This document shows, piece after piece, positions 11,261-64,000 of a DNA stretch of 64,000 nt (the first letter of the stretch is position 1; each line of letters opens with the position of its first letter). A model generated the notes under the pieces. That model was not told where the DNA came from. It ran no database searches and saw only the letters and a list, made by a program, of their open reading frames with translations. The translations under genes were made by a program, and so were the position numbers. Source of the DNA: Peronospora farinosa (lineage: Eukaryota > Oomycota > Peronosporomycetes > Peronosporales > Peronosporaceae); contig CANTFK010000631.1 of NCBI GenBank assembly GCA_947646735.1, positions 79,171 through 143,170 on the forward strand, read 5' to 3'.

Positions 11261-11713
11261 TCTCATTTTGAGTCGTAGAGATAAAGCCGGTATTGGCTTG
11301 TTCCTCTTGTGCACTTCTTGCGTTAGTTCATTGAATCTCAAAGCTGTTAGCTTGTTCTTGCACTCTGAGCGTTGGTTCTCTGAATCCTTTAGCTTATTGC
11401 TTGTAGACTAGAAGTCTCTCCTAGTATCTTAGAACGGGTGAACTTATAGTCATTTTTAACATTCGTAGATTTACGTGGCTTTTAGCCGTAACTTAAATTA
11501 GTTCTTTTAAACTAATAGGCGTTTAGCCTTCAAAGTCTTCCTCTGACTAAAGAGCTGTGTAGCTCCGAAATGAAAATTTTGTTGGTCAGCCCCTCCTACA
11601 CAGGGACATTATCACAAAAGAAGATAATATTGTCAAATCTTTTTATTAATAATAATATTCTTATTGGCACTTAATATTAGTGCCAATATAATGTAACGGA
11701 CTCACCCGTTACA
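11261..11713. repeat. LTR-like repeat remnant with palindromes
   Basis: Non-coding, with two palindromes near its right end: a near-perfect 25-bp hairpin (11663-11687) and an 8-bp inverted repeat TGTAACGG/CCGTTACA (11692-11699 and 11706-11713). On the minus strand the right boundary would begin TGTAACGG, a plausible LTR start. The left boundary is not clear and no target duplication was found, so a solo LTR is only an inference. Confidence 0.35.
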
Positions 11714-21447: not shown

Positions 21448-21633
21448 CATTCAAAAGCGGGCCAAAAGACGAAAAAAACAGCACTTTGGTCAGCACCAGT
21501 AACAGCGACACGGACAAAAAGCACAAAAGCGACACCGACAAAGCCTTTGAATAGCCTCTCAACTCGAAACGTTTTGTACACCAACCACATTACTAATAAT
21601 CTAAGCATATTCCTAATTCCAAGTCACTTTACT

Positions 21634-36469: not shown

Positions 36470-39400
36470 TTAACTGGTGCAAAAACGATCACTTATCTTT
36501 TTCCAATCTTGCAAACTCATGTTGACCAAGTGCCGCAATCGAGTAGGATTCTGACGGTTTGTGTGGTAATCACGCTATCTTTTGCTCAAGCAGTATGATG
36601 ATTCGCGGCTCTCGAGTACTGGCTTCTCGCATACATATTGAACAATGGACAATTTGAGCTTGCAACTGTTGCCCCTGGCTTCGAACAAAGAGCAACACGT
36701 ATTTTTCTTTTGCTTTTGGAGTGTTTACATTTTTGAGGAACTCAGCAATTATATTTTCCCCTCCAGCTCTAGGTCCTTTTTCATTAACTCTTTGAAAGAA
36801 GGAGTCGTCATCCCCTCCTTGAGTTTCTTATCGTCTTCAGTGATGGAGACCAGCCAGACGCTGCCCCTCATCGTCAGAAAAAGCTGCAGCTGATCCGCAT
36901 CAAAGTGGTTTAAGGCGTTCATCTTTTCCGCCTAAATGTTCTTCTTCAAGTGGTACATCGACTTTTCCGTATCAATGTCGATAGCGAAAGCACTACCTCT
37001 TTGACCAACGATCGCGCAGTACAGAGTTTACCATCATTCAAACCAGCAAATTCTCAAATAAAGAATCACGAATTTTCTGTTCACAACTAAATATGATTGA
37101 CTATGTATTCGCTTATGCTGAGGCCAAGACGAGAGACATTCTCCCATTTTGACTGGCCGACTAACAAATAATATCGATGCCGCTGAGCGAACAACTTCGA
37201 CGTCTTCTAAAAAGAAGGCTTTATTCGGACTACAGGTCCACTAAAGAAGGTTACATCCTTTCTTCCTATGTTTCTGAATGCTACGACGCTGAAACGCTGA
37301 ACGGTGTCGCCGTCAACTGGTGCAAAAACGATCACATTATCTTATTCCAATCTTGCAAACTCATGTTGACCAAGTGCCGCAATCGAGTAGGATTCTGACG
37401 GTTTGTGTGGTAATCACGCTATCTTTTGCTCAAGCAGTATGATGATTCGCGGCTCTCGAGTACTGGCTTCTCGCATACATACTGAACAATGGACAATTTG
37501 AGCTTGCAACTGTTGCCCCTGGCTTCGAACAAAGAGCAACACGTATTTTTCTTTTGCTTTTGGAGTGTTTACATTTTTGAGGAACTCAGCAATTATATTT
37601 TCCCCTCCAGCTCTAGGTCCTTTTTCATTAACTCTTTGAAAGAAGGAGTCGTCATCCCCTCCTTGAGTTTCTTATCGTCTTCAGTGATGGAGACCAGCCA
37701 GACGCTGCCCCTCATCGTCAGAAAAAAGCTGCAGCTGATCCGCATTAAAGTGGTTTAAGGCGTTCATCTTTTCCGCCTAAATGTTCTTCTTCAAGTGGTA
37801 CATCGACTTTTCCGTATCAATGTCGATAGCGAAAGCACTACCTCTTTGACCAACGATCGCGCAGTACAGAGTTTACCATCATTCAAACCAGCAAATTCTC
37901 AAATAAAGAATCACGAATTTTCTGTTCACAACTAAATATGATTGACTATGTATTCGCTTATGCTGAGGCCAAGACGAGAGACATTCTCCCATTTTGACTG
38001 GCCGACTACCAAAATAATATCGATGCCGCTGAGCGAACAACTTCGACGTCTTCTAAAAAGAAGGCTTTATTCGGACTACAGGTCCACTAAAGAAGGTTAC
38101 ATCCTTTCTTCCTATGTTTCTGATTGCTACGACGCTGAAACGCTGAACGGTGTCGCCGTCAACTGGTGCAAAAACGATCACGTTATCTTATTCCAATCTT
38201 GCAAACTCATGTTGACCAAGTGCCGCAATCGAGTAGGATTCTGATGGTTTGTGTGGTAATCACGCTATCTTTTGCTCAAGCAGTATGATGATTCGCGGCT
38301 CTCGAGTACTGGATTCTCGCATACGTACTGAACAATGGACAATTTGAGCTTGCAACTGTTGCCCCTGGCTTCGAACAAAGAGCAACACGTATTTTTCTTT
38401 TGCTTTTGGAGTGTTTACATTTTTGAGGAACTCAGCAATTATATTTTCCCCTCCAGCTCTAGGTCCTTTTTCATTAACTCTTTGAAAGAAGGAGTCGTCA
38501 TCCCCTCCTTGAGTTTCTTATCGTCTTCAGTGATGGAGACCAGCCAGACGCTGCCCCTCATCGTCAGAAAAAGCTGCAGCTGATCCGCATCAAAGTGGTT
38601 TAAGGCGTTCATCTTTTCCGCCTAAATGTTCTTCTTCAAGTGGTACATCGACTTTTCCGTATCAATGTCGATAGCGAAAGCACTACCTCTTTGACCAACG
38701 ATCGCGCAGTACAGAGTTTACCATCATTCAAACCAGCAAATTCTCAAATAAAGAATCACGAATTTTCTGTTCACAACTAAATATGATTGACTATGTATTC
38801 GCTTATGCTGAGGCCAAGACGAGAGACATTCTCCCATTTTGACTGGCCGACTACCAAAATAATATCGATGCCGCTGAGCGAACAACTTCGACGTCTTCTA
38901 AAAAGAAGGCTTTATTCGGACTACAGGTCCACTAAAGAAGGTTACATCCTTTCTTCCTATGTTTCTGAATGCTACGACGCTGAAACGCTGAACGGTGTCG
39001 CCGTCAACTGGTGCAAAAACGATCACATTATCTTATTCCAATCTTGCAAACTCATGTTGACCAAGTGCCGCAATCGAGTAGGATTCTGACGGTTTGTGTG
39101 GTAATCACGCTATCTTTTGCTCAAGCAGTATGATGATTCGCGGCTCTCGAGTACTGGCTTCTCGCATACATACTGAACAATGGACAATTTGAGCTTGCAA
39201 CTGTTGCCCCTGGCTTCGAACAAAGAGCAACACGTATTTTTCTTTTGCTTTTGGAGTGTTTACATTTTTGAGGAACTCAGCAATTATATTTTCCCCTCCA
39301 GCTCTAGGTCCTTTTTCATTAACTCTTTGAAAGAAGGAGTCGTCATCCCCTCCTTGAGTTTCTTATCGTCTTCAGTGATGGAGACCAGCCAGACGCTGCC

Positions 39401-42400
39401 CCTCATCGTCAGAAAAAAGCTGCAGCTGATCCGCATTAAAGTGGTTTAAGGCGTTCATCTTTTCCGCCTAAATGTTCTTCTTCAAGTGGTACATCGACTT
39501 TTCCGTATCAATGTCGATAGCGAAAGCACTACCTCTTTGACCAACGATCGCGCAGTACAGAGTTTACCATCATTCAAACCAGCAAATTCTCAAATAAAGA
39601 ATCACGAATTTTCTGTTCACAACTAAATATGATTGACTATGTATTCGCTTATGCTGAGGCCAAGACGAGAGACATTCTCCCATTTTGACTGGCCGACTAC
39701 CAAAATAATATCGATGCCGCTGAGCGAACAACTTCGACGTCTTCTAAAAAGAAGGCTTTATTCGGACTACAGGTCCACTAAAGAAGGTTACATCCTTTCT
39801 TCCTATGTTTCTGAATGCTACGACGCTGAAACGCTGAACGGTGTCGCCGTCAACTGGTGCAAAAACGATCACGTTATCTTATTCCAATCTTGCAAACTCA
39901 TGTTGACCAAGTGCCGCAATCGAGTAGGATTCTGATGGTTTGTGTGGTAATCACGCTATCTTTTGCTCAAGCAGTATGATGATTCGCGGCTCTCGAGTAC
40001 TGGCTTCTCGCATACATACTGAACAATGGACAATTTGAGCTTGCAACTGTTGCCCCTGGCTTCGAACAAAGAGCAACACGTATTTTTCTTTTGCTTTTGG
40101 AGTGTTTACATTTTTGAGGAACTCAGCAATTATATTTTCCCCTCCAGCTCTAGGTCCTTTTTCATTAACTCTTTGAAAGAAGGAGTCGTCATCCCCTCCT
40201 TGAGTTTCTTATCGTCTTCAGTGATGGAGACCAGCCAGACGCTGCCCCTCATCGTCAGAAAAAAGCTGCAGCTGATCCGCATCAAAGTGGTTTAAGGCGT
40301 TCATCTTTTCCGCCTAAATGTTCTTCTTCAAGTGGTACATCGACTTTTCCGTATCAATGTCGATAGCGAAAGCACTACCTCTTTGACCAACGATCGCGCA
40401 GTACAGAGTTTACCATCATTCAAACCAGCAAATTCTCAAATAAAGAATCACGAATTTTCTGTTCACAACTAAATATGATTGACTATGTATTCGCTTATGC
40501 TGAGGCCAAGACGAGAGACATTCTCCCATTTTGACTGGCCGACTACCAAAATAATATCGATGCCGCTGAGCGAACAACTTCGACGTCTTCTAAAAAGAAG
40601 GCTTTATTCGGACTACAGGTCCACTAAAGAAGGTTACATCCTTTCTTCCTATGTTTCTGAATGCTACGACGCTGAAACGCTGAACGGTGTCGCCGTCAAC
40701 TGGTGCAAAAACGATCACATTATCTTATTCCAATCTTGCAAACTCATGTTGACCAAGTGCCGCAATCGAGTAGGATTCTGACGGTTTGTGTGGTAATCAC
40801 GCTATCTTTTGCTCAAGCAGTATGATGATTCGCGGCTCTCGAGTACTGGCTTCTCGCATACATACTGAACAATGGACAATTTGAGCTTGCAACTGTTGCC
40901 CCTGGCTTCGAACAAAGAGCAACACGTATTTTTCTTTTGCTTTTGGAGTGTTTACATTTTTGAGGAACTCAGCAATTATATTTTCCCCTCCAGCTCTAGG
41001 TCCTTTTTCATTAACTCTTTGAAAGAAGGAGTCGTCATCCCCTCCTTGAGTTTCTTATCGTCTTCAGTGATGGAGACCAGCCAGACGCTGCCCCTCATCG
41101 TCAGAAAAAAGCTGCAGCTGATCCGCATCAAAGTGGTTTAAGGCGTTCATCTTTTCCGCCTAAATGTTCTTCTTCAAGTGGTACATCGACTTTTCCGTAT
41201 CAATGTCGATAGCGAAAGCACTACCTCTTTGACCAACGATCGCGCAGTACAGAGTTTACCATCATTCAAACCAGCAAATTCTCAAATAAAGAATCACGAA
41301 TTTTCTGTTCACAACTAAATATGATTGACTATGTATTCGCTTATGCTGAGGCCAAGACGAGAGACATTCTCCCATTTTGACTGGCCGACTACCAAAATAA
41401 TATCGATGCCGCTGAGCGAACAACTTCGACGTCTTCTAAAAAGAAGGCTTTATTCGGACTACAGGTCCACTAAAGAAGGTTACATCCTTTCTTCCTATGT
41501 TTCTGAATGCTACGACGCTGAAACGCTGAACGGTGTCGCCGTCAACTGGTGCAAAAACGATCACATTATCTTATTCCAATCTTGCAAACTCATGTTGACC
41601 AAGTGCCGCAATCGAGTAGGATTCTGACGGTTTGTGTGGTAATCACGCTATCTTTTGCTCAAGCAGTATGATGATTCGCGGCTCTCGAGTACTGGCTTCT
41701 CGCATACATACTGAACAATGGACAATTTGAGCTTGCAACTGTTGCCCCTGGCTTCGAACAAAGAGCAACACGTATTTTTCTTTTGCTTTTGGAGTGTTTA
41801 CATTTTTGAGGAACTCAGCAATTATATTTTCCCCTCCAGCTCTAGGTCCTTTTTCATTAACTCTTTGAAAGAAGGAGTCGTCATCCCCTCCTTGAGTTTC
41901 TTATCGTCTTCAGTGATGGAGACCAGCCAGACGCTGCCCCTCATCGTCAGAAAAAAGCTGCAGCTGATCCGCATCAAAGTGGTTTAAGGCGTTCATCTTT
42001 TCCGCCTAAATGTTCTTCTTCAAGTGGTACATCGACTTTTCCGTATCAATGTCGATAGCGAAAGCACTACCTCTTTGACCAACGATCGCGCAGTACAGAG
42101 TTTACCATCATTCAAACCAGCAAATTCTCAAATAAAGAATCACGAATTTTCTGTTCACAACTAAATATGATTGACTATGTATTCGCTTATGCTGAGGCCA
42201 AGACGAGAGACATTCTCCCATTTTGACTGGCCGACTACCAAAATAATATCGATGCCGCTGAGCGAACAACTTCGACGTCTTCTAAAAAGAAGGCTTTATT
42301 CGGACTACAGGTCCACTAAAGAAGGTTACATCCTTTCTTCCTATGTTTCTGAATGCTACGACGCTGAAACGCTGAACGGTGTCGCCGTCAACTGGTGCAA

Positions 42401-45400
42401 AAACGATCACATTATCTTATTCCAATCTTGCAAACTCATGTTGACCAAGTGCCGCAATCGAGTAGGATTCTGACGGTTTGTGTGGTAATCACGCTATCTT
42501 TTGCTCAAGCAGTATGATGATTCGCGGCTCTCGAGTACTGGCTTCTCGCATACATACTGAACAATGGACAATTTGAGCTTGCAACTGTTGCCCCTGGCTT
42601 CGAACAAAGAGCAACACGTATTTTTCTTTTGCTTTTGGAGTGTTTACATTTTTGAGGAACTCAGCAATTATATTTTCCCCTCCAGCTCTAGGTCCTTTTT
42701 CATTAACTCTTTGAAAGAAGGAGTCGTCATCCCCTCCTTGAGTTTCTTATCGTCTTCAGTGATGGAGACCAGCCAGACGCTGCCCCTCATCGTCAGAAAA
42801 AAGCTGCAGCTGATCCGCATCAAAGTGGTTTAAGGCGTTCATCTTTTCCGCCTAAATGTTCTTCTTCAAGTGGTACATCGACTTTTCCGTATCAATGTCG
42901 ATAGCGAAAGCACTACCTCTTTGACCAACGATCGCGCAGTACAGAGTTTACCATCATTCAAACCAGCAAATTCTCAAATAAAGAATCACGAATTTTCTGT
43001 TCACAACTAAATATGATTGACTATGTATTCGCTTATGCTGAGGCCAAGACGAGAGACATTCTCCCATTTTGACTGGCCGACTACCAAAATAATATCGATG
43101 CCGCTGAGCGAACAACTTCGACGTCTTCTAAAAAGAAGGCTTTATTCGGACTACAGGTCCACTAAAGAAGGTTACATCCTTTCTTCCTATGTTTCTGAAT
43201 GCTACGACGCTGAAACGCTGAACGGTGTCGCCGTCAACTGGTGCAAAAACGATCACATTATCTTATTCCAATCTTGCAAACTCATGTTGACCAAGTGCCG
43301 CAATCGAGTAGGATTCTGACGGTTTGTGTGGTAATCACGCTATCTTTTGCTCAAGCAGTATGATGATTCGCGGCTCTCGAGTACTGGCTTCTCGCATACA
43401 TACTGAACAATGGACAATTTGAGCTTGCAACTGTTGCCCCTGGCTTCGAACAAAGAGCAACACGTATTTTTCTTTTGCTTTTGGAGTGTTTACATTTTTG
43501 AGGAACTCAGCAATTATATTTTCCCCTCCAGCTCTAGGTCCTTTTTCATTAACTCTTTGAAAGAAGGAGTCGTCATCCCCTCCTTGAGTTTCTTATCGTC
43601 TTCAGTGATGGAGACCAGCCAGACGCTGCCCCTCATCGTCAGAAAAAAGCTGCAGCTGATCCGCATCAAAGTGGTTTAAGGCGTTCATCTTTTCCGCCTA
43701 AATGTTCTTCTTCAAGTGGTACATCGACTTTTCCGTATCAATGTCGATAGCGAAAGCACTACCTCTTTGACCAACGATCGCGCAGTACAGAGTTTACCAT
43801 CATTCAAACCAGCAAATTCTCAAATAAAGAATCACGAATTTTCTGTTCACAACTAAATATGATTGACTATGTATTCGCTTATGCTGAGGCCAAGACGAGA
43901 GACATTCTCCCATTTTGACTGGCCGACTACCAAAATAATATCGATGCCGCTGAGCGAACAACTTCGACGTCTTCTAAAAAGAAGGCTTTATTCGGACTAC
44001 AGGTCCACTAAAGAAGGTTACATCCTTTCTTCCTATGTTTCTGAATGCTACGACGCTGAAACGCTGAACGGTGTCGCCGTCAACTGGTGCAAAAACGATC
44101 ACATTATCTTATTCCAATCTTGCAAACTCATGTTGACCAAGTGCCGCAATCGAGTAGGATTCTGACGGTTTGTGTGGTAATCACGCTATCTTTTGCTCAA
44201 GCAGTATGATGATTCGCGGCTCTCGAGTACTGGCTTCTCGCATACATACTGAACAATGGACAATTTGAGCTTGCAACTGTTGCCCCTGGCTTCGAACAAA
44301 GAGCAACACGTATTTTTCTTTTGCTTTTGGAGTGTTTACATTTTTGAGGAACTCAGCAATTATATTTTCCCCTCCAGCTCTAGGTCCTTTTTCATTAACT
44401 CTTTGAAAGAAGGAGTCGTCATCCCCTCCTTGAGTTTCTTATCGTCTTCAGTGATGGAGACCAGCCAGACGCTGCCCCTCATCGTCAGAAAAAAGCTGCA
44501 GCTGATCCGCATCAAAGTGGTTTAAGGCGTTCATCTTTTCCGCCTAAATGTTCTTCTTCAAGTGGTACATCGACTTTTCCGTATCAATGTCGATAGCGAA
44601 AGCACTACCTCTTTGACCAACGATCGCGCAGTACAGAGTTTACCATCATTCAAACCAGCAAATTCTCAAATAAAGAATCACGAATTTTCTGTTCACAACT
44701 AAATATGATTGACTATGTATTCGCTTATGCTGAGGCCAAGACGAGAGACATCCTCCCATTTTGACTGGCCGCCTACCAAAATAATATCGATGCCGCTGAG
44801 CGAACAACTTCGACGTCTTCTAAAAAGAAGGCTTTATTCGGACTACAGGTCCACTAAAGAAGGTTACATCCTTTCTTCCTATGTTTCTGAATGCTACGAC
44901 GCTGAAACGCTGAACGGTGTCGCCGTCAACTGGTGCAAAAACGATCACATTATCTTATTCCAATCTTGCAAACTCATGTTGACCAAGTGCCGCAATCGAG
45001 TAGGATTCTGATGGTTTGTGTGGTAATCACGCTATCTTTTGCTCAAGCAGTATGATGATTCGCGGCTCTCGAGTACTGGCTTCTCGCATACATACTGAAC
45101 AATGGACAATTTGAGCTTGCAACTGTTGCCCCTGGCTTCGAACAAAGAGCAACACGTATTTTTCTTTTGCTTTTGGAGTGTTTACATTTTTGAGGAACTC
45201 AGCAATTATATTTTCCCCTCCAGCTCTAGGTCCTTTTTCATTAACTCTTTGAAAGAAGGAGTCGTCATCCCCTCCTTGAGTTTCTTATCGTCTTCAGTGA
45301 TGGAGACCAGCCAGACGCTGCCCCTCATCGTCAGAAAAAAGCTGCAGCTGATCCGCATCAAAGTGGTTTAAGGCGTTCATCTTTTCCGCCTAAATGTTCT

Positions 45401-48400
45401 TCTTCAAGTGGTACATCGACTTTTCCGTATCAATGTCGATAGCGAAAGCACTACCTCTTTGACCAACGATCGCGCAGTACAGAGTTTACCATCATTCAAA
45501 CCAGCAAATTCTCAAATAAAGAATCACGAATTTTCTGTTCACAACTAAATATGATTGACTATGTATTCGCTTATGCTGAGGCCAAGACGAGAGACATCCT
45601 CCCATTTTGACTGGCCGCCTACCAAAATAATATCGATGCCGCTGAGCGAACAACTTCGACGTCTTCTAAAAAGAAGGCTTTATTCGGACTACAGGTCCAC
45701 TAAAGAAGGTTACATCCTTTCTTCCTATGTTTCTGAATGCTACGACGCTGAAACGCTGAACGGTGTCGCCGTCAACTGGTGCAAAAACGATCACATTATC
45801 TTATTCCAATCTTGCAAACTCATGTTGACCAAGTGCCGCAATCGAGTAGGATTCTGATGGTTTGTGTGGTAATCACGCTATCTTTTGCTCAAGCAGTATG
45901 ATGATTCGCGGCTCTCGAGTACTGGCTTCTCGCATACATACTGAACAATGGACAATTTGAGCTTGCAACTGTTGCCCCTGGCTTCGAACAAAGAGCAACA
46001 CGTATTTTTCTTTTGCTTTTGGAGTGTTTACATTTTTGAGGAACTCAGCAATTATATTTTCCCCTCCAGCTCTAGGTCCTTTTTCATTAACTCTTTGAAA
46101 GAAGGAGTCGTCATCCCCTCCTTGAGTTTCTTATCGTCTTCAGTGATGGAGACCAGCCAGACGCTGCCCCTCATCGTCAGAAAAAAGCTGCAGCTGATCC
46201 GCATCAAAGTGGTTTAAGGCGTTCATCTTTTCCGCCTAAATGTTCTTCTTCAAGTGGTACATCGACTTTTCCGTATCAATGTCGATAGCGAAAGCACTAC
46301 CTCTTTGACCAACGATCGCGCAGTACAGAGTTTACCATCATTCAAACCAGCAAATTCTCAAATAAAGAATCACGAATTTTCTGTTCACAACTAAATATGA
46401 TTGACTATGTATTCGCTTATGCTGAGGCCAAGACGAGAGACATCCTCCCATTTTGACTGGCCGCCTACCAAAATAATATCGATGCCGCTGAGCGAACAAC
46501 TTCGACGTCTTCTAAAAAGAAGGCTTTATTCGGACTACAGGTCCACTAAAGAAGGTTACATCCTTTCTTCCTATGTTTCTGAATGCTACGACGCTGAAAC
46601 GCTGAACGGTGTCGCCGTCAACTGGTGCAAAAACGATCACATTATCTTATTCCAATCTTGCAAACTCATGTTGACCAAGTGCCGCAATCGAGTAGGATTC
46701 TGATGGTTTGTGTGGTAATCACGCTATCTTTTGCTCAAGCAGTATGATGATTCGCGGCTCTCGAGTACTGGCTTCTCGCATACATACTGAACAATGGACA
46801 ATTTGAGCTTGCAACTGTTGCCCCTGGCTTCGAACAAAGAGCAACACGTATTTTTCTTTTGCTTTTGGAGTGTTTACATTTTTGAGGAACTCAGCAATTA
46901 TATTTTCCCCTCCAGCTCTAGGTCCTTTTTCATTAACTCTTTGAAAGAAGGAGTCGTCATCCCCTCCTTGAGTTTCTTATCGTCTTCAGTGATGGAGACC
47001 AGCCAGACGCTGCCCCTCATCGTCAGAAAAAAGCTGCAGCTGATCCGCATCAAAGTGGTTTAAGGCGTTCATCTTTTCCGCCTAAATGTTCTTCTTCAAG
47101 TGGTACATCGACTTTTCCGTATCAATGTCGATAGCGAAAGCACTACCTCTTTGACCAACGATCGCGCAGTACAGAGTTTACCATCATTCAAACCAGCAAA
47201 TTCTCAAATAAAGAATCACGAATTTTCTGTTCACAACTAAATATGATTGACTATGTATTCGCTTATGCTGAGGCCAAGACGAGAGACATCCTCCCATTTT
47301 GACTGGCCGCCTACCAAAATAATATCGATGCCGCTGAGCGAACAACTTCGACGTCTTCTAAAAAGAAGGCTTTATTCGGACTACAGGTCCACTAAAGAAG
47401 GTTACATCCTTTCTTCCTATGTTTCTGAATGCTACGACGCTGAAACGCTGAACGGTGTCGCCGTCAACTGGTGCAAAAACGATCACATTATCTTATTCCA
47501 ATCTTGCAAACTCATGTTGACCAAGTGCCGCAATCGAGTAGGATTCTGATGGTTTGTGTGGTAATCACGCTATCTTTTGCTCAAGCAGTATGATGATTCG
47601 CGGCTCTCGAGTACTGGCTTCTCGCATACATACTGAACAATGGACAATTTGAGCTTGCAACTGTTGCCCCTGGCTTCGAACAAAGAGCAACACGTATTTT
47701 TCTTTTGCTTTTGGAGTGTTTACATTTTTGAGGAACTCAGCAATTATATTTTCCCCTCCAGCTCTAGGTCCTTTTTCATTAACTCTTTGAAAGAAGGAGT
47801 CGTCATCCCCTCCTTGAGTTTCTTATCGTCTTCAGTGATGGAGACCAGCCAGACGCTGCCCCTCATCGTCAGAAAAAAGCTGCAGCTGATCCGCATCAAA
47901 GTGGTTTAAGGCGTTCATCTTTTCCGCCTAAATGTTCTTCTTCAAGTGGTACATCGACTTTTCCGTATCAATGTCGATAGCGAAAGCACTACCTCTTTGA
48001 CCAACGATCGCGCAGTACAGAGTTTACCATCATTCAAACCAGCAAATTCTCAAATAAAGAATCACGAATTTTCTGTTCACAACTAAATATGATTGACTAT
48101 GTATTCGCTTATGCTGAGGCCAAGACGAGAGACATCCTCCCATTTTGACTGGCCGACTACCAAAATAATATCGATGCCGCTGAGCGAACAACTTCGACGT
48201 CTTCTAAAAAGAAGGCTTTATTCGGACTACAGGTCCACTAAAGAAGGTTACATCCTTTCTTCCTATGTTTCTGAATGCTACGACGCTGAAACGCTGAACG
48301 GTGTCGCCGTCAACTGGTGCAAAAACGATCACGTTATCTTATTCCAATCTTGCAAACTCATGTTGACCAAGTGCCGCAATCGAGTAGGATTCTGATGGTT

Positions 48401-51400: not shown

Positions 51401-54400
51401 ACAGAGTTTACCATCATTCAAACCAGCAAATTCTCAAATAAAGAATCACGAATTTTCTGTTCACAACTAAATATGATTGACTATGTATTCGCTTATGCTG
51501 AGGCCAAGACGAGAGACATTCTCCCATTTTGACTGGCCGACTACCAAAATAATATCGATGCCGCTGAGCGAACAACTTCGACGTCTTCTAAAAGAAGGCT
51601 TTATTCGGACTACAGGTCCACTAAAGAAGGTTACATCCTTTCTTCCTATGTTTCTGAATGCTACGACGCTGAAACGCTGAACGGTGTCGCCGTCAACTGG
51701 TGCAAAAACGATCACGTTATCTTATTCCAATCTTGCAAACTCATGTTGACCAAGTGCCGCAATCGAGTAGGATTCTGATGGTTTGTGTGGTAATCACGCT
51801 ATCTTTTGCTCAAGCAGTATGATGATTCGCGGCTCTCGAGTACTGGCTTCTCGCATACATACTGAACAATGGACAATTTGAGCTTGCAACTGTTGCCCCT
51901 GGCTTCGAACAAAGAGCAACACGTATTTTTCTTTTGCTTTTGGAGTGTTTACATTTTTGAGGAACTCAGCAATTATATTTTCCCCTCCAGCTCTAGGTCC
52001 TTTTTCATTAACTCTTTGAAAGAAGGAGTCGTCATCCCCTCCTTGAGTTTCTTATCGTCTTCAGTGATGGAGACCAGCCAGACGCTGCCCCTCATCGTCA
52101 GAAAAAAGCTGCAGCTGATCCGCATCAAAGTGGTTTAAGGCGTTCATCTTTTCCGCCTAAATGTTCTTCTTCAAGTGGTACATCGACTTTTCCGTATCAA
52201 TGTCGATAGCGAAAGCACTACCTCTTTGACCAACGATCGCGCAGTACAGAGTTTACCATCATTCAAACCAGCAAATTCTCAAATAAAGAATCACGAATTT
52301 TCTGTTCACAACTAAATATGATTGACTATGTATTCGCTTATGCTGAGGCCAAGACGAGAGACATCCTCCCATTTTGACTGGCCGCCTACCAAAATAATAT
52401 CGATGCCGCTGAGCGAACAACTTCGACGTCTTCTAAAAAGAAGGCTTTATTCGGACTACAGGTCCACTAAAGAAGGTTACATCCTTTCTTCCTATGTTTC
52501 TGAATGCTACGACGCTGAAACGCTGAACGGTGTCGCCGTCAACTGGTGCAAAAACGATCACGTTATCTTATTCCAATCTTGCAAACTCATGTTGACCAAG
52601 TGCCGCAATCGAGTAGGATTCTGATGGTTTGTGTGGTAATCACGCTATCTTTTGCTCAAGCAGTATGATGATTCGCGGCTCTCGAGTACTGGCTTCTCGC
52701 ATACATACTGAACAATGGACAATTTGAGCTTGCAACTGTTGCCCCTGGCTTCGAACAAAGAGCAACACGTATTTTTCTTTTGCTTTTGGAGTGTTTACAT
52801 TTTTGAGGAACTCAGCAATTATATTTTCCCCTCCAGCTCTAGGTCCTTTTTCATTAACTCTTTGAAAGAAGGAGTCGTCATCCCCTCCTTGAGTTTCTTA
52901 TCGTCTTCAGTGATGGAGACCAGCCAGACGCTGCCCCTCATCGTCAGAAAAAAGCTGCAGCTGATCCGCATCAAAGTGGTTTAAGGCGTTCATCTTTTCC
53001 GCCTAAATGTTCTTCTTCAAGTGGTACATCGACTTTTCCGTATCAATGTCGATAGCGAAAGCACTACCTCTTTGACCAACGATCGCGCAGTACAGAGTTT
53101 ACCATCATTCAAACCAGCAAATTCTCAAATAAAGAATCACGAATTTTCTGTTCACAACTAAATATGATTGACTATGTATTCGCTTATGCTGAGGCCAAGA
53201 CGAGAGACATCCTCCCATTTTGACTGGCCGACTACCAAAATAATATCGATGCCGCTGAGCGAACAACTTCGACGTCTTCTAAAAAGAAGGCTTTATTCGG
53301 ACTACAGGTCCACTAAAGAAGGTTACATCCTTTCTTCCTATGTTTCTGAATGCTACGACGCTGAAACGCTGAACGGTGTCGCCGTCAACTGGTGCAAAAA
53401 CGATCACGTTATCTTATTCCAATCTTGCAAACTCATGTTGACCAAGTGCCGCAATCGAGTAGGATTCTGATGGTTTGTGTGGTAATCACGCTATCTTTTG
53501 CTCAAGCAGTATGATAATTCGCGACTCTTGAGTACTGGCTTCTCGCATACATACTGAACAATGGACAATTTGAGCTTGCAACTGTTGCCCCTGGCTTCGA
53601 ACAAAGAGCAACACGTATTTTTCTTTTGCTTTTGGAGTGTTTACATTTTTGAGGAACTCAGCAATTATATTTTCCCCTCCAGCTCTAGGTCCTTTTTCAT
53701 TAACTCTTTGAAAGAAGGAGTCGTCATCCCCTCCTTGAGTTTCTTATCGTCTTCAGTGATGGAGACCAGCCAGACGCTGCCCCTCATCGTCAGAAAAAAG
53801 CTGCAGCTGATCCGCATCAAAGTGGTTTAAGGCGTTCATCTTTTCCGCCTAAATGTTCTTCTTCAAGTGGTACATCGACTTTTCCGTATCAATGTCGATA
53901 GCGAAAGCACTACCTCTTTGACCAACGATCGCGCAGTACAGAGTTTACCATCATTCAAACCAGCAAATTCTCAAATAAAGAATCACGAATTTTCTGTTCA
54001 CAACTAAATATGATTGACTATGTATTCGCTTATGCTGAGGCCAAGACGAGAGACATCCTCCCATTTTGACTGGCCGACTACCAAAATAATATCGATGCCG
54101 CTGAGCGAACAACTTCGACGTCTTCTAAAAAGAAGGCTTTATTCGGACTACAGGTCCACTAAAGAAGGTTACATCCTTTCTTCCTATGTTTCTGAATGCT
54201 ACGACGCTGAAACGCTGAACGGTGTCGCCGTCAACTGGTGCAAAAACGATCACGTTATCTTATTCCAATCTTGCAAACTCATGTTGACCAAGTGCCGCAA
54301 TCGAGTAGGATTCTGATGGTTTGTGTGGTAATCACGCTATCTTTTGCTCAAGCAGTATGATAATTCGCGACTCTCGAGTACTGGCTTCTCGCATACATAC

Positions 54401-57400
54401 TGAACAATGGACAATTTGAGCTTGCAACTGTTGCCCCTGGCTTCGAACAAAGAGCAACACGTATTTTTCTTTTGCTTTTGGAGTGTTTACATTTTTGAGG
54501 AACTCAGCAATTATATTTTCCCCTCCAGCTCTAGGTCCTTTTTCATTAACTCTTTGAAAGAAGGAGTCGTCATCCCCTCCTTGAGTTTCTTATCGTCTTC
54601 AGTGATGGAGACCAGCCAGACGCTGCCCCTCATCGTCAGAAAAAAGCTGCAGCTGATCCGCATCAAAGTGGTTTAAGGCGTTCATCTTTTCCGCCTAAAT
54701 GTTCTTCTTCAAGTGGTACATCGACTTTTCCGTATCAATGTCGATAGCGAAAGCACTACCTCTTTGACCAACGATCGCGCAGTACAGAGTTTACCATCAT
54801 TCAAACCAGCAAATTCTCAAATAAAGAATCACGAATTTTCTGTTCACAACTAAATATGATTGACTATGTATTCGCTTATGCTGAGGCCAAGACGAGAGAC
54901 ATCCTCCCATTTTGACTGGCCGACTACCAAAATAATATCGATGCCGCTGAGCGAACAACTTCGACGTCTTCTAAAAAGAAGGCTTTATTCGGACTACAGG
55001 TCCACTAAAGAAGGTTACATCCTTTCTTCCTATGTTTCTGAATGCTACGACGCTGAAACGCTGAACGGTGTCGCCGTCAACTGGTGCAAAAACGATCACG
55101 TTATCTTATTCCAATCTTGCAAACTCATGTTGACCAAGTGCCGCAATCGAGTAGGATTCTGATGGTTTGTGTGGTAATCACGCTATCTTTTGCTCAAGCA
55201 GTATGATAATTCGCGACTCTTGAGTACTGGCTTCTCGCATACATACTGAACAATGGACAATTTGAGCTTGCAACTGTTGCCCCTGGCTTCGAACAAAGAG
55301 CAACACGTATTTTTCTTTTGCTTTTGGAGTGTTTACATTTTTGAGGAACTCAGCAATTATATTTTCCCCTCCAGCTCTAGGTCCTTTTTCATTAACTCTT
55401 TGAAAGAAGGAGTCGTCATCCCCTCCTTGAGTTTCTTATCGTCTTCAGTGATGGAGACCAGCCAGACGCTGCCCCTCATCGTCAGAAAAAAGCTGCAGCT
55501 GATCCGCATCAAAGTGGTTTAAGGCGTTCATCTTTTCCGCCTAAATGTTCTTCTTCAAGTGGTACATCGACTTTTCCGTATCAATGTCGATAGCGAAAGC
55601 ACTACCTCTTTGACCAACGATCGCGCAGTACAGAGTTTACCATCATTCAAACCAGCAAATTCTCAAATAAAGAATCACGAATTTTCTGTTCACAACTAAA
55701 TATGATTGACTATGTATTCGCTTATGCTGAGGCCAAGACGAGAGACATCCTCCCATTTTGACTGGCCGACTACCAAAATAATATCGATGCCGCTGAGCGA
55801 ACAACTTCGACGTCTTCTAAAAAGAAGGCTTTATTCGGACTACAGGTCCACTAAAGAAGGTTACATCCTTTCTTCCTATGTTTCTGAATGCTACGACGCT
55901 GAAACGCTGAACGGTGTCGCCGTCAACTGGTGCAAAAACGATCACGTTATCTTATTCCAATCTTGCAAACTCATGTTGACCAAGTGCCGCAATCGAGTAG
56001 GATTCTGATGGTTTGTGTGGTAATCACGCTATCTTTTGCTCAAGCAGTATGATAATTCGCGACTCTTGAGTACTGGCTTCTCGCATACATACTGAACAAT
56101 GGACAATTTGAGCTTGCAACTGTTGCCCCTGGCTTCGAACAAAGAGCAACACGTATTTTTCTTTTGCTTTTGGAGTGTTTACATTTTTGAGGAACTCAGC
56201 AATTATATTTTCCCCTCCAGCTCTAGGTCCTTTTTCATTAACTCTTTGAAAGAAGGAGTCGTCATCCCCTCCTTGAGTTTCTTATCGTCTTCAGTGATGG
56301 AGACCAGCCAGACGCTGCCCCTCATCGTCAGAAAAAAGCTGCAGCTGATCCGCATCAAAGTGGTTTAAGGCGTTCATCTTTTCCGCCTAAATGTTCTTCT
56401 TCAAGTGGTACATCGACTTTTCCGTATCAATGTCGATAGCGAAAGCACTACCTCTTTGACCAACGATCGCGCAGTACAGAGTTTACCATCATTCAAACCA
56501 GCAAATTCTCAAATAAAGAATCACGAATTTTCTGTTCACAACTAAATATGATTGACTATGTATTCGCTTATGCTGAGGCCAAGACGAGAGACATCCTCCC
56601 ATTTTGACTGGCCGACTACCAAAATAATATCGATGCCGCTGAGCGAACAACTTCGACGTCTTCTAAAAAGAAGGCTTTATTCGGACTACAGGTCCACTAA
56701 AGAAGGTTACATCCTTTCTTCCTATGTTTCTGAATGCTACGACGCTGAAACGCTGAACGGTGTCGCCGTCAACTGGTGCAAAAACGATCACGTTATCTTA
56801 TTCCAATCTTGCAAACTCATGTTGACCAAGTGCCGCAATCGAGTAGGATTCTGATGGTTTGTGTGGTAATCACGCTATCTTTTGCTCAAGCAGTATGATA
56901 ATTCGCGACTCTTGAGTACTGGCTTCTCGCATACATACTGAACAATGGACAATTTGAGCTTGCAACTGTTGCCCCTGGCTTCGAACAAAGAGCAACACGT
57001 ATTTTTCTTTTGCTTTTGGAGTGTTTACATTTTTGAGGAACTCAGCAATTATATTTTCCCCTCCAGCTCTAGGTCCTTTTTCATTAACTCTTTGAAAGAA
57101 GGAGTCGTCATCCCCTCCTTGAGTTTCTTATCGTCTTCAGTGATGGAGACCAGCCAGACGCTGCCCCTCATCGTCAGAAAAAAGCTGCAGCTGATCCGCA
57201 TCAAAGTGGTTTAAGGCGTTCATCTTTTCCGCCTAAATGTTCTTCTTCAAGTGGTACATCGACTTTTCCGTATCAATGTCGATAGCGAAAGCACTACCTC
57301 TTTGACCAACGATCGCGCAGTACAGAGTTTACCATCATTCAAACCAGCAAATTCTCAAATAAAGAATCACGAATTTTCTGTTCACAACTAAATATGATTG

Positions 57401-60400
57401 ACTATGTATTCGCTTATGCTGAGGCCAAGACGAGAGACATCCTCCCATTTTGACTGGCCGACTACCAAAATAATATCGATGCCGCTGAGCGAACAACTTC
57501 GACGTCTTCTAAAAAGAAGGCTTTATTCGGACTACAGGTCCACTAAAGAAGGTTACATCCTTTCTTCCTATGTTTCTGAATGCTACGACGCTGAAACGCT
57601 GAACGGTGTCGCCGTCAACTGGTGCAAAAACGATCACGTTATCTTATTCCAATCTTGCAAACTCATGTTGACCAAGTGCCGCAATCGAGTAGGATTCTGA
57701 TGGTTTGTGTGGTAATCACGCTATCTTTTGCTCAAGCAGTATGATAATTCGCGACTCTTGAGTACTGGCTTCTCGCATACATACTGAACAATGGACAATT
57801 TGAGCTTGCAACTGTTGCCCCTGGCTTCGAACAAAGAGCAACACGTATTTTTCTTTTGCTTTTGGAGTGTTTACATTTTTGAGGAACTCAGCAATTATAT
57901 TTTCCCCTCCAGCTCTAGGTCCTTTTTCATTAACTCTTTGAAAGAAGGAGTCGTCATCCCCTCCTTGAGTTTCTTATCGTCTTCAGTGATGGAGACCAGC
58001 CAGACGCTGCCCCTCATCGTCAGAAAAAAGCTGCAGCTGATCCGCATCAAAGTGGTTTAAGGCGTTCATCTTTTCCGCCTAAATGTTCTTCTTCAAGTGG
58101 TACATCGACTTTTCCGTATCAATGTCGATAGCGAAAGCACTACCTCTTTGACCAACGATCGCGCAGTACAGAGTTTACCATCATTCAAACCAGCAAATTC
58201 TCAAATAAAGAATCACGAATTTTCTGTTCACAACTAAATATGATTGACTATGTATTCGCTTATGCTGAGGCCAAGACGAGAGACATCCTCCCATTTTGAC
58301 TGGCCGACTACCAAAATAATATCGATGCCGCTGAGCGAACAACTTCGACGTCTTCTAAAAAGAAGGCTTTATTCGGACTACAGGTCCACTAAAGAAGGTT
58401 ACATCCTTTCTTCCTATGTTTCTGAATGCTACGACGCTGAAACGCTGAACGGTGTCGCCGTCAACTGGTGCAAAAACGATCACGTTATCTTATTCCAATC
58501 TTGCAAACTCATGTTGACCAAGTGCCGCAATCGAGTAGGATTCTGATGGTTTGTGTGGTAATCACGCTATCTTTTGCTCAAGCAGTATGATAATTCGCGG
58601 CTCTCGAGTACTGGCTTCTCGCATACATACTGAACAATGGACAATTTGAGCTTGCAACTGTTGCCCCTGGCTTCGAACAAAGAGCAACACGTATTTTTCT
58701 TTTGCTTTTGGAGTGTTTACATTTTTGAGGAACTCAGCAATTATATTTTCCCCTCCAGCTCTAGGTCCTTTTTCATTAACTCTTTGAAAGAAGGAGTCGT
58801 CATCCCCTCCTTGAGTTTCTTATCGTCTTCAGTGATGGAGACCAGCCAGACGCTGCCCCTCATCGTCAGAAAAAGCTGCAGCTGATCCGCATCAAAGTGG
58901 TTTAAGGCGTTCATCTTTTCCGCCTAAATGTTCTTCTTCAAGTGGTACATCGACTTTTCCGTATCAATGTCGATAGCGAAAGCACTACCTCTTTGACCAA
59001 CGATCGCGCAGTACAGAGTTTACCATCATTCAAACCAGCAAATTCTCAAATAAAGAATCACGAATTTTCTGTTCACAACTAAATATGATTGACTATGTAT
59101 TCGCTTATGCTGAGGCCAAGACGAGAGACATCCTCCCATTTTGACTGGCCGACTACCAAAATAATATCGATGCCGCTGAGCGAACAACTTCGACGTCTTC
59201 TAAAAAGAAGGCTTTATTCGGACTACAGGTCCACTAAAGAAGGTTACATCCTTTCTTCCTATGTTTCTGAATGCTACGACGCTGAAACGCTGAACGGTGT
59301 CGCCGTCAACTGGTGCAAAAACGATCACGTTATCTTATTCCAATCTTGCAAACTCATGTTGACCAAGTGCCGCAATCGAGTAGGATTCTGATGGTTTGTG
59401 TGGTAATCACGCTATCTTTTGCTCAAGCAGTATGATAATTCGCGACTCTTGAGTACTGGCTTCTCGCATACATACTGAACAATGGACAATTTGAGCTTGC
59501 AACTGTTGCCCCTGGCTTCGAACAAAGAGCAACACGTATTTTTCTTTTGCTTTTGGAGTGTTTACATTTTTGAGGAACTCAGCAATTATATTTTCCCCTC
59601 CAGCTCTAGGTCCTTTTTCATTAACTCTTTGAAAGAAGGAGTCGTCATCCCCTCCTTGAGTTTCTTATCGTCTTCAGTGATGGAGACCAGCCAGACGCTG
59701 CCCCTCATCGTCAGAAAAAAGCTGCAGCTGATCCGCATCAAAGTGGTTTAAGGCGTTCATCTTTTCCGCCTAAATGTTCTTCTTCAAGTGGTACATCGAC
59801 TTTTCCGTATCAATGTCGATAGCGAAAGCACTACCTCTTTGACCAACGATCGCGCAGTACAGAGTTTACCATCATTCAAACCAGCAAATTCTCAAATAAA
59901 GAATCACGAATTTTCTGTTCACAACTAAATATGATTGACTATGTATTCGCTTATGCTGAGGCCAAGACGAGAGACATCCTCCCATTTTGACTGGCCGACT
60001 ACCAAAATAATATCGATGCCGCTGAGCGAACAACTTCGACGTCTTCTAAAAAGAAGGCTTTATTCGGACTACAGGTCCACTAAAGAAGGTTACATCCTTT
60101 CTTCCTATGTTTCTGAATGCTACGACGCTGAAACGCTGAACGGTGTCGCCGTCAACTGGTGCAAAAACGATCACGTTATCTTATTCCAATCTTGCAAACT
60201 CATGTTGACCAAGTGCCGCAATCGAGTAGGATTCTGATGGTTTGTGTGGTAATCACGCTATCTTTTGCTCAAGCAGTATGATAATTCGCGACTCTTGAGT
60301 ACTGGCTTCTCGCATACATACTGAACAATGGACAATTTGAGCTTGCAACTGTTGCCCCTGGCTTCGAACAAAGAGCAACACGTATTTTTCTTTTGCTTTT

Positions 60401-63400
60401 GGAGTGTTTACATTTTTGAGGAACTCAGCAATTATATTTTCCCCTCCAGCTCTAGGTCCTTTTTCATTAACTCTTTGAAAGAAGGAGTCGTCATCCCCTC
60501 CTTGAGTTTCTTATCGTCTTCAGTGATGGAGACCAGCCAGACGCTGCCCCTCATCGTCAGAAAAAAGCTGCAGCTGGTCCGCATCAAAGTGGTTTAAGGC
60601 GTTCATCTTTTCCGCCTAAATGTTCTTCTTCAAGTGGTACATCGACTTTTCCGTATCAATGTCGATAGCGAAAGCACTACCTCTTTGACCAACGATCGCG
60701 CAGTACAGAGTTTACCATCATTCAAACCAGCAAATTCTCAAATAAAGAATCACGAATTTTCTGTTCACAACTAAATATGATTGACTATGTATTCGCTTAT
60801 GCTGAGGCCAAGACGAGAGACATCCTCCCATTTTGACTGGCCGACTACCAAAATAATATCGATGCCGCTGAGCGAACAACTTCGACGTCTTCTAAAAAGA
60901 AGGCTTTATTCGGACTACAGGTCCACTAAAGAAGGTTACATCCTTTCTTCCTATGTTTCTGAATGCTACGACGCTGAAACGCTGAACGGTGTCGCCGTCA
61001 ACTGGTGCAAAAACGATCACGTTATCTTATTCCAATCTTGCAAACTCATGTTGACCAAGTGCCGCAATCGAGTAGGATTCTGATGGTTTGTGTGGTAATC
61101 ACGCTATCTTTTGCTCAAGCAGTATGATAATTCGCGACTCTTGAGTACTGGCTTCTCGCATACATACTGAACAATGGACAATTTGAGCTTGCAACTGTTG
61201 CCCCTGGCTTCGAACAAAGAGCAACACGTATTTTTCTTTTGCTTTTGGAGTGTTTACATTTTTGAGGAACTCAGCAATTATATTTTCCCCTCCAGCTCTA
61301 GGTCCTTTTTCATTAACTCTTTGAAAGAAGGAGTCGTCATCCCCTCCTTGAGTTTCTTATCGTCTTCAGTGATGGAGACCAGCCAGACGCTGCCCCTCAT
61401 CGTCAGAAAAAAGCTGCAGCTGGTCCGCATCAAAGTGGTTTAAGGCGTTCATCTTTTCCGCCTAAATGTTCTTCTTCAAGTGGTACATCGACTTTTCCGT
61501 ATCAATGTCGATAGCGAAAGCACTACCTCTTTGACCAACGATCGCGCAGTACAGAGTTTACCATCATTCAAACCAGCAAATTCTCAAATAAAGAATCACG
61601 AATTTTCTGTTCACAACTAAATATGATTGACTATGTATTCGCTTATGCTGAGGCCAAGACGAGAGACATCCTCCCATTTTGACTGGCCGACTACCAAAAT
61701 AATATCGATGCCGCTGAGCGAACAACTTCGACGTCTTCTAAAAAGAAGGCTTTATTCGGACTACAGGTCCACTAAAGAAGGTTACATCCTTTCTTCCTAT
61801 GTTTCTGAATGCTACGACGCTGAAACGCTGAACGGTGTCGCCGTCAACTGGTGCAAAAACGATCACGTTATCTTATTCCAATCTTGCAAACTCATGTTGA
61901 CCAAGTGCCGCAATCGAGTAGGATTCTGATGGTTTGTGTGGTAATCACGCTATCTTTTGCTCAAGCAGTATGATAATTCGCGACTCTTGAGTACTGGCTT
62001 CTCGCATACATACTGAACAATGGACAATTTGAGCTTGCAACTGTTGCCCCTGGCTTCGAACAAAGAGCAACACGTATTTTTCTTTTGCTTTTGGAGTGTT
62101 TACATTTTTGAGGAACTCAGCAATTATATTTTCCCCTCCAGCTCTAGGTCCTTTTTCATTAACTCTTTGAAAGAAGGAGTCGTCATCCCCTCCTTGAGTT
62201 TCTTATCGTCTTCAGTGATGGAGACCAGCCAGACGCTGCCCCTCATCGTCAGAAAAAAGCTGCAGCTGGTCCGCATCAAAGTGGTTTAAGGCGTTCATCT
62301 TTTCCGCCTAAATGTTCTTCTTCAAGTGGTACATCGACTTTTCCGTATCAATGTCGATAGCGAAAGCACTACCTCTTTGACCAACGATCGCGCAGTACAG
62401 AGTTTACCATCATTCAAACCAGCAAATTCTCAAATAAAGAATCACGAATTTTCTGTTCACAACTAAATATGATTGACTATGTATTCGCTTATGCTGAGGC
62501 CAAGACGAGAGACATCCTCCCATTTTGACTGGCCGACTACCAAAATAATATCGATGCCGCTGAGCGAACAACTTCGACGTCTTCTAAAAAGAAGGCTTTA
62601 TTCGGACTACAGGTCCACTAAAGAAGGTTACATCCTTTCTTCCTATGTTTCTGAATGCTACGAAACGCTGAACGGTGTTGCCGTCAACTGGTGCAAAAAC
62701 GATCACGTTATCTTATTCCAATCTTGCAAACTCATGTTGACCAAGTGCCGCAATCGAGTAGGATTCTGATGGTTTGTGTGGTAATCACGCTATCTTTTGC
62801 TCAAGCAGTATGATAATTCGCGACTCTTGAGTACTGGCTTCTCGCATACATACTGAACAATGGACAATTTGAGCTTGCAACTGTTGCCCCTGGCTTCGAA
62901 CAAAGAGCAACACGTATTTTTCTTTTGCTTTTGGAGTGTTTACATTTTTGAGGAACTCAGCAATTATATTTTCCCCTCCAGCTCTAGGTCCTTTTTCATT
63001 AACTCTTTGAAAGAAGGAGTCGTCATCCCCTCCTTGAGTTTCTTATCGTCTTCAGTGATGGAGACCAGCCAGACGCTGCCCCTCATCGTCAGAAAAAAGC
63101 TGCAGCTGGTCCGCATCAAAGTGGTTTAAGGCGTTCATCTTTTCCGCCTAAATGTTCTTCTTCAAGTGGTACATCGACTTTTCCGTATCAATGTCGATAG
63201 CGAAAGCACTACCTCTTTGACCAACGATCGCGCAGTACAGAGTTTACCATCATTCAAACCAGCAAATTCTCAAATAAAGAATCACGAATTTTCTGTTCAC
63301 AACTAAATATGATTGACTATGTATTCGCTTATGCTGAGGCCAAGACGAGAGACATCCTCCCATTTTGACTGACCGCCTACCAAAATAATATCGATGCCGC

Positions 63401-64000
63401 TGAGCGAACAACTTCGACGTCTTCTAAAAAGAAGGCTTTATTCGGACTACAGGTCCACTAAAGAAGGTTACATCCTTTCTTCCTATGTTTCTGAATGCTA
63501 CGACGCTGAAACGCTGAACGGTGTCGCCGTCAACTGGTGCAAAAACGATCACGTTATCTTATTCCAATCTTGCAAACTCATGTTGACCAAGTGCCGCAAT
63601 CGAGTAGGATTCTGATGGTTTGTGTGGTAATCACGCTATCTTTTGCTCAAGCAGTATGATAATTCGCGACTCTTGAGTACTGGCTTCTCGCATACATACT
63701 GAACAATGGACAATTTGAGCTTGCAACTGTTGCCCCTGGCTTCGAACAAAGAGCAACACGTATTTTTCTTTTGCTTTTGGAGTGTTTACATTTTTGAGGA
63801 ACTCAGCAATTATATTTTCCCCTCCAGCTCTAGGTCCTTTTTCATTAACTCTTTGAAAGAAGGAGTCGTCATCCCCTCCTTGAGTTTCTTATCGTCTTCA
63901 GTGATGGAGACCAGCCAGACGCTGCCCCTCATCGTCAGAAAAAGCTGCAGCTGGTCCGCATCAAAGTGGTTTAAGGCGTTCATCTTTTCCGCCTAAATGT
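36470..64000. repeat. 846-bp satellite array, about 32.5 tandem units, continues past window
   Basis: Head-to-tail units with a period of 846 bp. A landmark ATGGACAATTTG recurs at 36645, 37489, 38335, 39180, 40026 and then every 846 bp to 51024; at 51869, then every 846 bp to 58637; at 59482, then every 846 bp to 62020; then at 62860 and 63706. Units of 844 or 845 bp come from A-run slippage, near 36880 and 38570, 51592 and 58870; the 840-bp unit has a 6-bp deletion near 62663. Neighbouring units are nearly identical. The left edge is a partial, more diverged unit; the right edge is outside the window. Minus-strand content is a broken CRN gene (next entry). Confidence 0.98.
36570..37034 (-). 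pseudogene. Decayed Crinkler (CRN) N-terminal region, first of about 33 satellite copies
   Basis: Described from the copy at 39951-40416; this first copy is equivalent. From the minus-strand ATG at 40416, and after a frame change within about five codons, the frame reads GSAFAIDIDTEKS, passes a TAG at 40314-40316 and continues AEKMNALNHFDADQLQLF, matching the start and the LFLAK position of CRN effectors. It stops at TGA 40218-40220. A second frame reads ITEDDKKLKEG and FKELMKKDLELEG to TAA at 40130-40132. A third frame reads IIAEFLKNV and KEKYVLLFV, where CRNs have the HVLV-type end, and stops at 39951. The same breaks occur in every copy I compared. The rest of the unit (about 380 bp) has a short frame around VFAPVDGDTVQRFSVVAF of unknown origin. 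No copy can encode an intact effector. The last copy is cut by the window edge. Confidence 0.75.

What the first reader, a model, noticed from the sequence alone, without database searches (positions are those of the whole stretch)
36470..64000. Satellite DNA built from a dead Crinkler effector gene
Seen: at least 27.5 kb of an 846-bp unit in tandem, each unit holding on the minus strand ordered CRN N-terminal fragments (GSAFAIDIDTEKS, DADQLQLF, ITEDDKKLKEG, KEKYVLLFV) in three frames with shared stops. Known: CRNs are expanded, modular oomycete effectors, usually dispersed or in loose clusters. Inference: the gene decayed first and was then amplified as satellite. That would be an unusual fate for an effector gene; possible roles include a source of small RNAs silencing intact CRNs, heterochromatin seeding, a centromere-like array or a recombination donor for new CRNs.
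Basis: partly seen in the sequence, partly recalled or inferred. Interest (0 to 1): 0.88.

Follow-up and report, generated by a model that had tools for sequence, protein, structure and literature searches.

The report
Satellite array from broken effector gene
In this oomycete genome a broken fragment of a Crinkler effector gene, promoter side included, has been multiplied head to tail into a satellite array beside the stump of its own parent gene, and a Crinkler gene of another subfamily elsewhere in the genome has done the same, so effector genes can seed satellite DNA.

Summary
Confirmed. Window 36469-64000 is a tandem array of 32 complete units plus a partial one, about 846 bp each and 99.4% alike, running to the end of contig C177. 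All 32 units match the Crinkler (CRN) N-terminal domain above Pfam's cut-off, each with an in-frame TAG. The unit is one contiguous piece of a CRN locus: 5' flank, start, N domain and the beginning of the C-part. The CRN gene's 3' continuation (36252-36468) still adjoins the array, so amplification happened in place. The array resumes on contig C224 after a repeat insertion that looks like an LTR. Units at the edges differ more than central ones, as unequal exchange predicts. New here: contig C273 holds a second CRN satellite (577-578 bp, about 37 kb) from another CRN subfamily (common origin rejected, p-AU 3e-8). It too adjoins its parent gene's remainder, with a 4-bp microhomology at the junction. 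Both units keep the conserved 5' block next to the start codon. Most likely these are gene-derived, locus-bound satellites made by tandem duplication and unequal exchange, without a protein product. A small-RNA role is possible but untested: the first satellite shares exact 21-mers with only 1 of 20 CRN loci. A centromere role is unlikely.

The parts
36469..64000 (-). CRN-derived satellite array: 32 complete units of about 846 bp (36469-63528) and a 472-bp partial unit, cut by the contig end
   Evidence: periodicity and unit alignment; contig end
40245..40409 (-). CRN N-terminal domain remnant (PF20147 positions 2-54, one TAG inside) in one internal unit; 27 of 32 units match 2-54, two 2-53, three 2-83
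   Evidence: C177:119415-119579
40410..40539 (-). proximal 5' block of the CRN locus within the unit (about 130 bp next to the start codon), shared with other CRN loci and the second satellite
40677..40690 (.). unit junction, where CRN homology ends (5' side) and begins again (3' side); position for one internal unit
36252..36468 (-). 3' continuation of the parent CRN gene, still joined to the first unit
   Evidence: 79% to C224, 72-74% to C189, C177 and C176 CRN loci (over 36252-36436 or slightly more); local scores 510-601 against shuffled maxima of 215-228
36103..36258 (.). dispersed repeat (transposon-like, with 35762-35889) that cuts off the CRN remainder
33606..34151 (-). ThiF-family open frame 2.3 kb from the array
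25366..26739 (+). SET-domain open frame
21547..24267 (+). TFIIIC delta-subunit-like open frame

Best explanation
A CRN effector gene on this contig lost its reading frame. Its 5' part (promoter-side flank, start, N domain and the beginning of the C-part, 846 bp) was then tandemly duplicated in place and multiplied by unequal exchange into a homogenised, non-coding satellite array. The gene's 3' remainder stays at one edge. A different CRN gene on contig C273 went the same way independently, with a duplication junction at a 4-bp microhomology. Shown: the CRN origin, the contiguity of the unit with the CRN locus, the attached remainder, the homogeneity gradient, and two origins. Inferred: the order decay-then-amplification, unequal exchange as the engine, and that the array makes no protein and persists mainly as a by-product. 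Transcription from the retained 5' block and small-RNA production are possible but not shown.
For: PF20147 in 32 of 32 window units, all with a TAG. Unit positions 691-1523 align in one piece to a CRN locus on C189, and most paralog matches that reach the junction start at 691-697 or stop at 677. The left flank continues the CRN gene. Mean substitutions to all other units: 8.3 (u01), 5.9 (u02), 6.0 (u32) and 6.4 (C224 unit) at the edges, 2.9-4.5 in u05-u30; neighbours share variants, and the last complete window unit and the C224 unit share a variant seen in no other of the 33 units. Second array: 62 hits about 577.5 bp apart with no gap (my count), nearest CRN at C239 with 84% identity, right edge running on into the rest of the CRN gene (81.5%), ACCC at both edges, 34 units at 99.4%. 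Tree: one clade for both satellites rejected, p-AU 3.4e-8.
Against: Homogenisation can spread one lesion through an array, so shared stops do not strictly prove decay before amplification. Three units (u01, u03, u27) lack one base and there the domain match runs further, so not all lesions are shared by every unit; long-read base errors are not excluded. One CRN match (C189, L018) runs 22 bases past 677, over the junction. The right flank on C224 shows no homology to other CRN upstream regions (0 of 5), so only one edge ties the array to the parent gene. A clean microhomology at the junction was not seen for the 846-bp array. Codon-position counts did not clearly distinguish decay from divergence. 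No RNA, read-level or population data were available.
Confidence: 0.82

Rival explanations
1. The arrays are small-RNA loci that act like Suppressor of Stellate: each unit keeps the CRN 5' block, is transcribed, yields 21- or 25-nt RNAs, and tunes intact CRN genes.
For: Both satellites keep the proximal 5' block (intact pairs 63% against 51% shuffled; distal block 51.5% against 50.3%). In P. infestans, tandem and inverted repeats give the most small RNA per Mbp (PMC3804510, passages), and 21-nt RNAs map to CRN genes and pseudogenes (PMC3804510, PMC3522703, passages). P. [quoted passage not shown] Exact shared stretches of 31 and 25 nt with CRN loci on C64 and C176.
Against: The 846-bp satellite (three units taken) shares an exact 21-mer with only 1 of 20 CRN loci (700 bases either side of the domain), whereas those 20 loci share with 0-8 of the other 19, 14 of them with 5-7; the 577-bp satellite shares with 5 of 20. 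In P. infestans less than 1% of small-RNA reads overlap annotated satellite repeats (PMC3804510, passage). No RNA data of this species were available.
Confidence: 0.13
2. Centromeric or pericentromeric satellite that happened to be founded by a CRN fragment.
For: Long homogeneous array at a contig end; Copia pieces in the window and retroelement sequence beside the C224 end.
Against: Open frames for TFIIIC-delta, SET and ThiF proteins lie 2-12 kb away. Apart from C224, one search listed no copy above 84% identity elsewhere; that search skips common words and did not list the C177 array itself, so it is not exhaustive. In P. [quoted passage not shown] whether the Copia pieces here are CoLT was not tested.
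Confidence: 0.05
3. Assembly artefact, or error-ridden copies of an intact tandem CRN gene cluster.
For: Length differences of one base among units are typical of long-read errors; the contig breaks inside the array.
Against: 20 different sequences among 33 units with variants in blocks; the TAG is in all units hit; the unit lacks most of the CRN C-part; a second array with different units lies on another contig.
Confidence: 0.05

Closest known systems
Oomycete satellites PpSat1 and PpSat2 (Phytophthora parasitica; PMC7290008) and the 41 AeSat families (Aphanomyces euteiches; PMC8780586)
   Same: Long homogenised tandem arrays in oomycetes; in several scaffolds PpSat1 arrays are also more divergent at the borders, read as concerted evolution (section 15 of PMC7290008).
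   Different: Those are families at many loci with shorter units (AeSat screened at 100-500 bp); in AeSat regions no coding sequence was identified and ten families resemble transposons (passages). PMC7290008 has 0 occurrences of CRN or crinkler in its main text.
CRN pseudogenes and clusters of Phytophthora infestans (PMC3804510, PMC3522703; passages)
   Same: Broken CRN copies, grouped, some producing 21-nt RNAs.
   Different: The passages speak of clusters of genes and pseudogenes, not of head-to-tail sub-gene units; small RNA is unknown here.
Suppressor of Stellate repeats of Drosophila (PMC8412255, listing and start of abstract only)
   Same: Repeats that give small RNAs against repeated protein-coding genes; that they are tandem relatives of Stellate is recalled.
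   Different: Targeting of the protein-coding genes is reported there; here there is no RNA evidence, and exact matches to other CRNs are few.

Membership tests
Satellite DNA | long head-to-tail array of near-identical units | tested here: met
   32 complete units in the window; with one from C224, 99.4% mean identity, minimum 97.5%
Satellite DNA | concerted evolution: homogeneous centre, divergent edges | tested here: met
   mean substitutions to other units 5.9-8.3 in u01, u02, u32 and the C224 unit, 2.9-4.5 in u05-u30
Satellite DNA | no protein product | tested here: inconclusive
   no ORF of 120 aa or more in the array; the domain is broken by a stop in every unit; no RNA or protein data
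Satellite DNA | heterochromatin | not testable with these tools
   needs ChIP
CRN effector gene | CRN N-terminal domain (PF20147) | tested here: met
   49.6-59.7 bits against a cut-off of 24.6, partial (2-53, 2-54 or 2-83 of 106)
CRN effector gene | open frame through the N domain and a C-terminal effector part | tested here: not met
   TAG in 32 of 32 units, markers in two frames, unit ends early in the C-part
Oomycete genome | CRN and elicitin families present | tested here: met
   22 elicitin matches over cut-off, 0 of 14 controls; CRN; that elicitins mark oomycetes is recalled; species not identified
Suppressor-of-Stellate-like small-RNA locus | small RNAs from the repeat | not testable with these tools
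   no RNA data
Suppressor-of-Stellate-like small-RNA locus | near-perfect match to target genes | tested here: inconclusive
   exact 21-mer shared with 1 of 20 loci for the 846-bp unit, 5 of 20 for the 577-bp unit
Oomycete centromere | CENP-A binding, CoLT cluster | not tested
   flanking genes argue against it; the Copia pieces were not compared with CoLT

The most novel reading that the evidence does not exclude
CRN effector genes repeatedly turn their own 5' halves into promoter-bearing satellites, and these tandem loci feed small RNAs back on the CRN family: a copy-number-tunable, family-wide silencing dial born from dead effectors.
Probability: 0.1. Interest if true: 0.88.

Novelty: new variant of a known kind. 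Interest (0 to 1): 0.6.

Why it matters
Where a satellite comes from is often lost, because founder and array part ways (general knowledge). Here two founders of one gene family, from two subfamilies, are still attached to their arrays in one genome. That makes the birth of satellites from gene fragments directly testable: the breakpoint, the order of decay and amplification, and whether CRN loci are unusually prone to it. It also gives a concrete test of whether tandem effector debris feeds the CRN small RNAs already known in Phytophthora.

Tried and rejected
Transposon origin of the unit: no transposon family in the three minus frames (plus frames not scanned) and one-piece homology to a CRN locus; rejected. 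One common origin of both satellites: rejected. A first tree was discarded because four minus-strand loci had been left unturned; the short row C189b was dropped in the repeat. Codon-position counts: too noisy to time the decay. Oomycete initiator consensus, recalled from memory: no match in the 846-bp unit, dropped. Homology of the C224 right flank to other CRN upstream regions: none of 5 above the shuffles. Intact parent elsewhere: none close was listed; the nearest CRN loci are about 69% alike over most of the unit and 78-80% in the N domain. Structured RNA: no Rfam match at gathering score in the window.

Full report
Observation. The window is C177:79171-143170 of a 46.85-Mb assembly in 274 contigs; it ends where the contig ends. 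From 36469 on it is a tandem array with a period of 846: 32 complete units and a 472-bp tail. PF20147, the Crinkler N-terminal domain, is over its cut-off in 32 of 32 complete units, always with one TAG inside, and in 0 of 14 control genomes. With X at the stops, one of the three minus frames of a unit gives PF20147 at E = 1.1e-12 and none gives a transposon domain. GC is 43.2% in the array and 47.3% before it.

Organism. 22 elicitin matches and many CRN loci make it an oomycete (that elicitins are an oomycete mark is recalled). Of 150 scored PF20147 matches (of 224 candidates, so lower bounds), 32 are in the window array, 2 in its C224 piece, 62 in the C273 array, and 54 elsewhere, 50 of which have no stop inside the match (my tally).

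What the unit is. Unit positions 691-1523 (two units laid end to end) align in one piece to 807 bp of a CRN locus on C189 (67.7%, gaps included), whose 616-aa open frame holds PF20147 at 70.8 bits. Most other CRN matches that reach the place start at 691-697 or stop at 677, so the head-to-tail junction lies there; one (L018) runs on to 699. So the unit is one contiguous CRN segment: roughly 270 bp of 5' flank, the start, the N domain, and the beginning of the C-part.

Grown in place. Left of the first unit, 36252-36436 continues the CRN gene: 79% to a CRN locus on C224, 72-74% to those on C189, C177 and C176; local scores of 510-601 compare with shuffled maxima of 215-228 in 4 of 4 loci tested. 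Further left a dispersed repeat cuts the gene off. So the array is joined to the stump of its own parent. The far side: C224 begins with 154 bp of a high-copy repeat (40 matches scored of 765 candidates, itself included). It looks like an LTR, because eight same-strand pairs in that list lie 7.1-7.5 kb apart (my reading; the element was not traced). Then come 1948 bp of array, ending within about 25 bp of the unit junction. The last complete window unit and the C224 unit share a variant found in no other of the 33 units. I read C177 and C224 as the two ends of one array with a retroelement inserted. The C224 flank shows no CRN homology in 5 of 5 upstream regions tested.

Homogeneity. 33 complete units (32 window, 1 C224): mean identity 99.4%, minimum 97.5%, 20 different sequences, 29 variable columns. 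Counted by columns, gaps included, u01, u31 and u32 differ from the majority by 10, 11 and 6, the others by 0-5; u31 is 6 bases short. By substitutions alone the mean distance to the other units is 8.3 in u01, 5.9 in u02, 5.2 and 5.0 in u03 and u04, 2.9-4.5 in u05-u30, 5.5 in u31, 6.0 in u32 and 6.4 in the C224 unit. Variants are shared by neighbours. This is the mark of unequal exchange, as also described for PpSat1 of Phytophthora parasitica (PMC7290008, section 15 read).

A second CRN satellite. On C273, 62 PF20147 hits follow one another at a mean spacing of 577.5 bp from 295644 to 330963 with no gap (my count); with the edges seen in L012 and L037 the array spans about 295375-332342. The stretch between L013 and L037 was not fetched and is known by the hits alone. 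34 complete units in the fetched pieces (26 of 577, 7 of 578, 1 of 579 bp; pieces outside 560-600 bp were dropped): 99.4% mean identity, 24 different. Its nearest CRN is C239, at 84% over the first 313 bp; its right edge runs on into the rest of the CRN gene: L037:1896-2898, of which the last 555 bases lie beyond the array, is 81.5% alike to C239 over 1019 columns. The letters ACCC stand at the breakpoint in the left flank, the right edge and the internal junction, as expected from a duplication at microhomology; four letters alone can also agree by chance. In a tree of 23 rows the 846-bp unit falls with C189a, C90a and C90b, the 577-bp unit with C239 and C131; holding the satellites together costs 97 log units, p-AU 3.4e-8. 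So CRN genes have founded satellites at least twice in this genome. Larger tandem duplications with CRN loci may also occur: hits on C239 every 10.4 kb, on C263 every 15 kb, on C177 16.8 kb apart (positions).

How it may work. Among 13 other CRN loci (78 pairs) the proximal 130 bp before the domain start are 63% alike (51% shuffled), nearly as the coding part (65% and 52%), while the distal 200 bp are at chance (51.5% and 50.3%). Both satellites keep the proximal block: 62.5% for the 846-bp and 70% for the 577-bp unit against those loci (alignment of 12 rows). Whether it is a working promoter is inference. In P. infestans tandem and inverted repeats yield the most small RNA per Mbp, though annotated satellite repeats hold less than 1% of reads, and CRN genes and pseudogenes yield 21-nt RNAs (PMC3804510, PMC3522703, passages). 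Against a role in trans: the 846-bp unit shares an exact 21-mer with 1 of 20 CRN loci, while those loci share with 0-8 of the 19 others (700 bases either side of the domain, so shared flanking repeats may raise the latter). Over whole loci and all window units the longest exact matches are 31 nt (C64) and 25 nt (C176), 2 of 22 loci at 21 nt or more, against 14 in the 36 kb before the array. The 577-bp unit reaches 5 of 20. I therefore hold a by-product satellite to be most likely and a small-RNA role possible.

Literature. A search for Crinkler, satellite and tandem repeat gave 4 papers; passages of 3 were read and none links CRN to a satellite; the fourth, PMC3886924, was not opened. PMC7290008 has no occurrence of CRN or crinkler in its main text. 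Among the titles and abstract starts listed (30 of 184 papers; 15 of 112; 8 of 8) I saw none. Most subscription papers, and preprints, are not covered.

Check. Mended: which units match 2-53, 2-54 and 2-83; the edge gradient by substitutions; the reach, which did not list the C177 array itself; the LTR pairs; the distance of flanking genes (2-12 kb); the place of the satellites in the tree (different subfamilies, not opposite sides); what the centromere paper's passages say.

Noticed in passing
G000 C273:295375-332342 (L012, L013, L037): A second, independent CRN-derived satellite with a 577-578-bp unit, joined to the rest of its parent CRN gene.
   Followed up: yes
G000 C239 (999, 11429, 21856, 32287); C263 (196775, 211781, 226773); C177 (60300, 77125): CRN hits repeated at 10.4-kb, 15-kb and 16.8-kb spacing: probably larger tandem duplications with CRN genes.
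   Followed up: no
L011:1-154: High-copy, LTR-like end inserted in the 846-bp array at the start of contig C224.
   Followed up: partly
window 6699-10489, minus strand: Copia-type retroelement pieces (RVT_2, integrase, zinc knuckle); not compared with the centromeric CoLT.
   Followed up: no
L012:299-918, L009:5548-6173, window 11247-11551: A dispersed repeat beside the second satellite also occurs near the CRN genes upstream of the window and, in part, inside the window.
   Followed up: no
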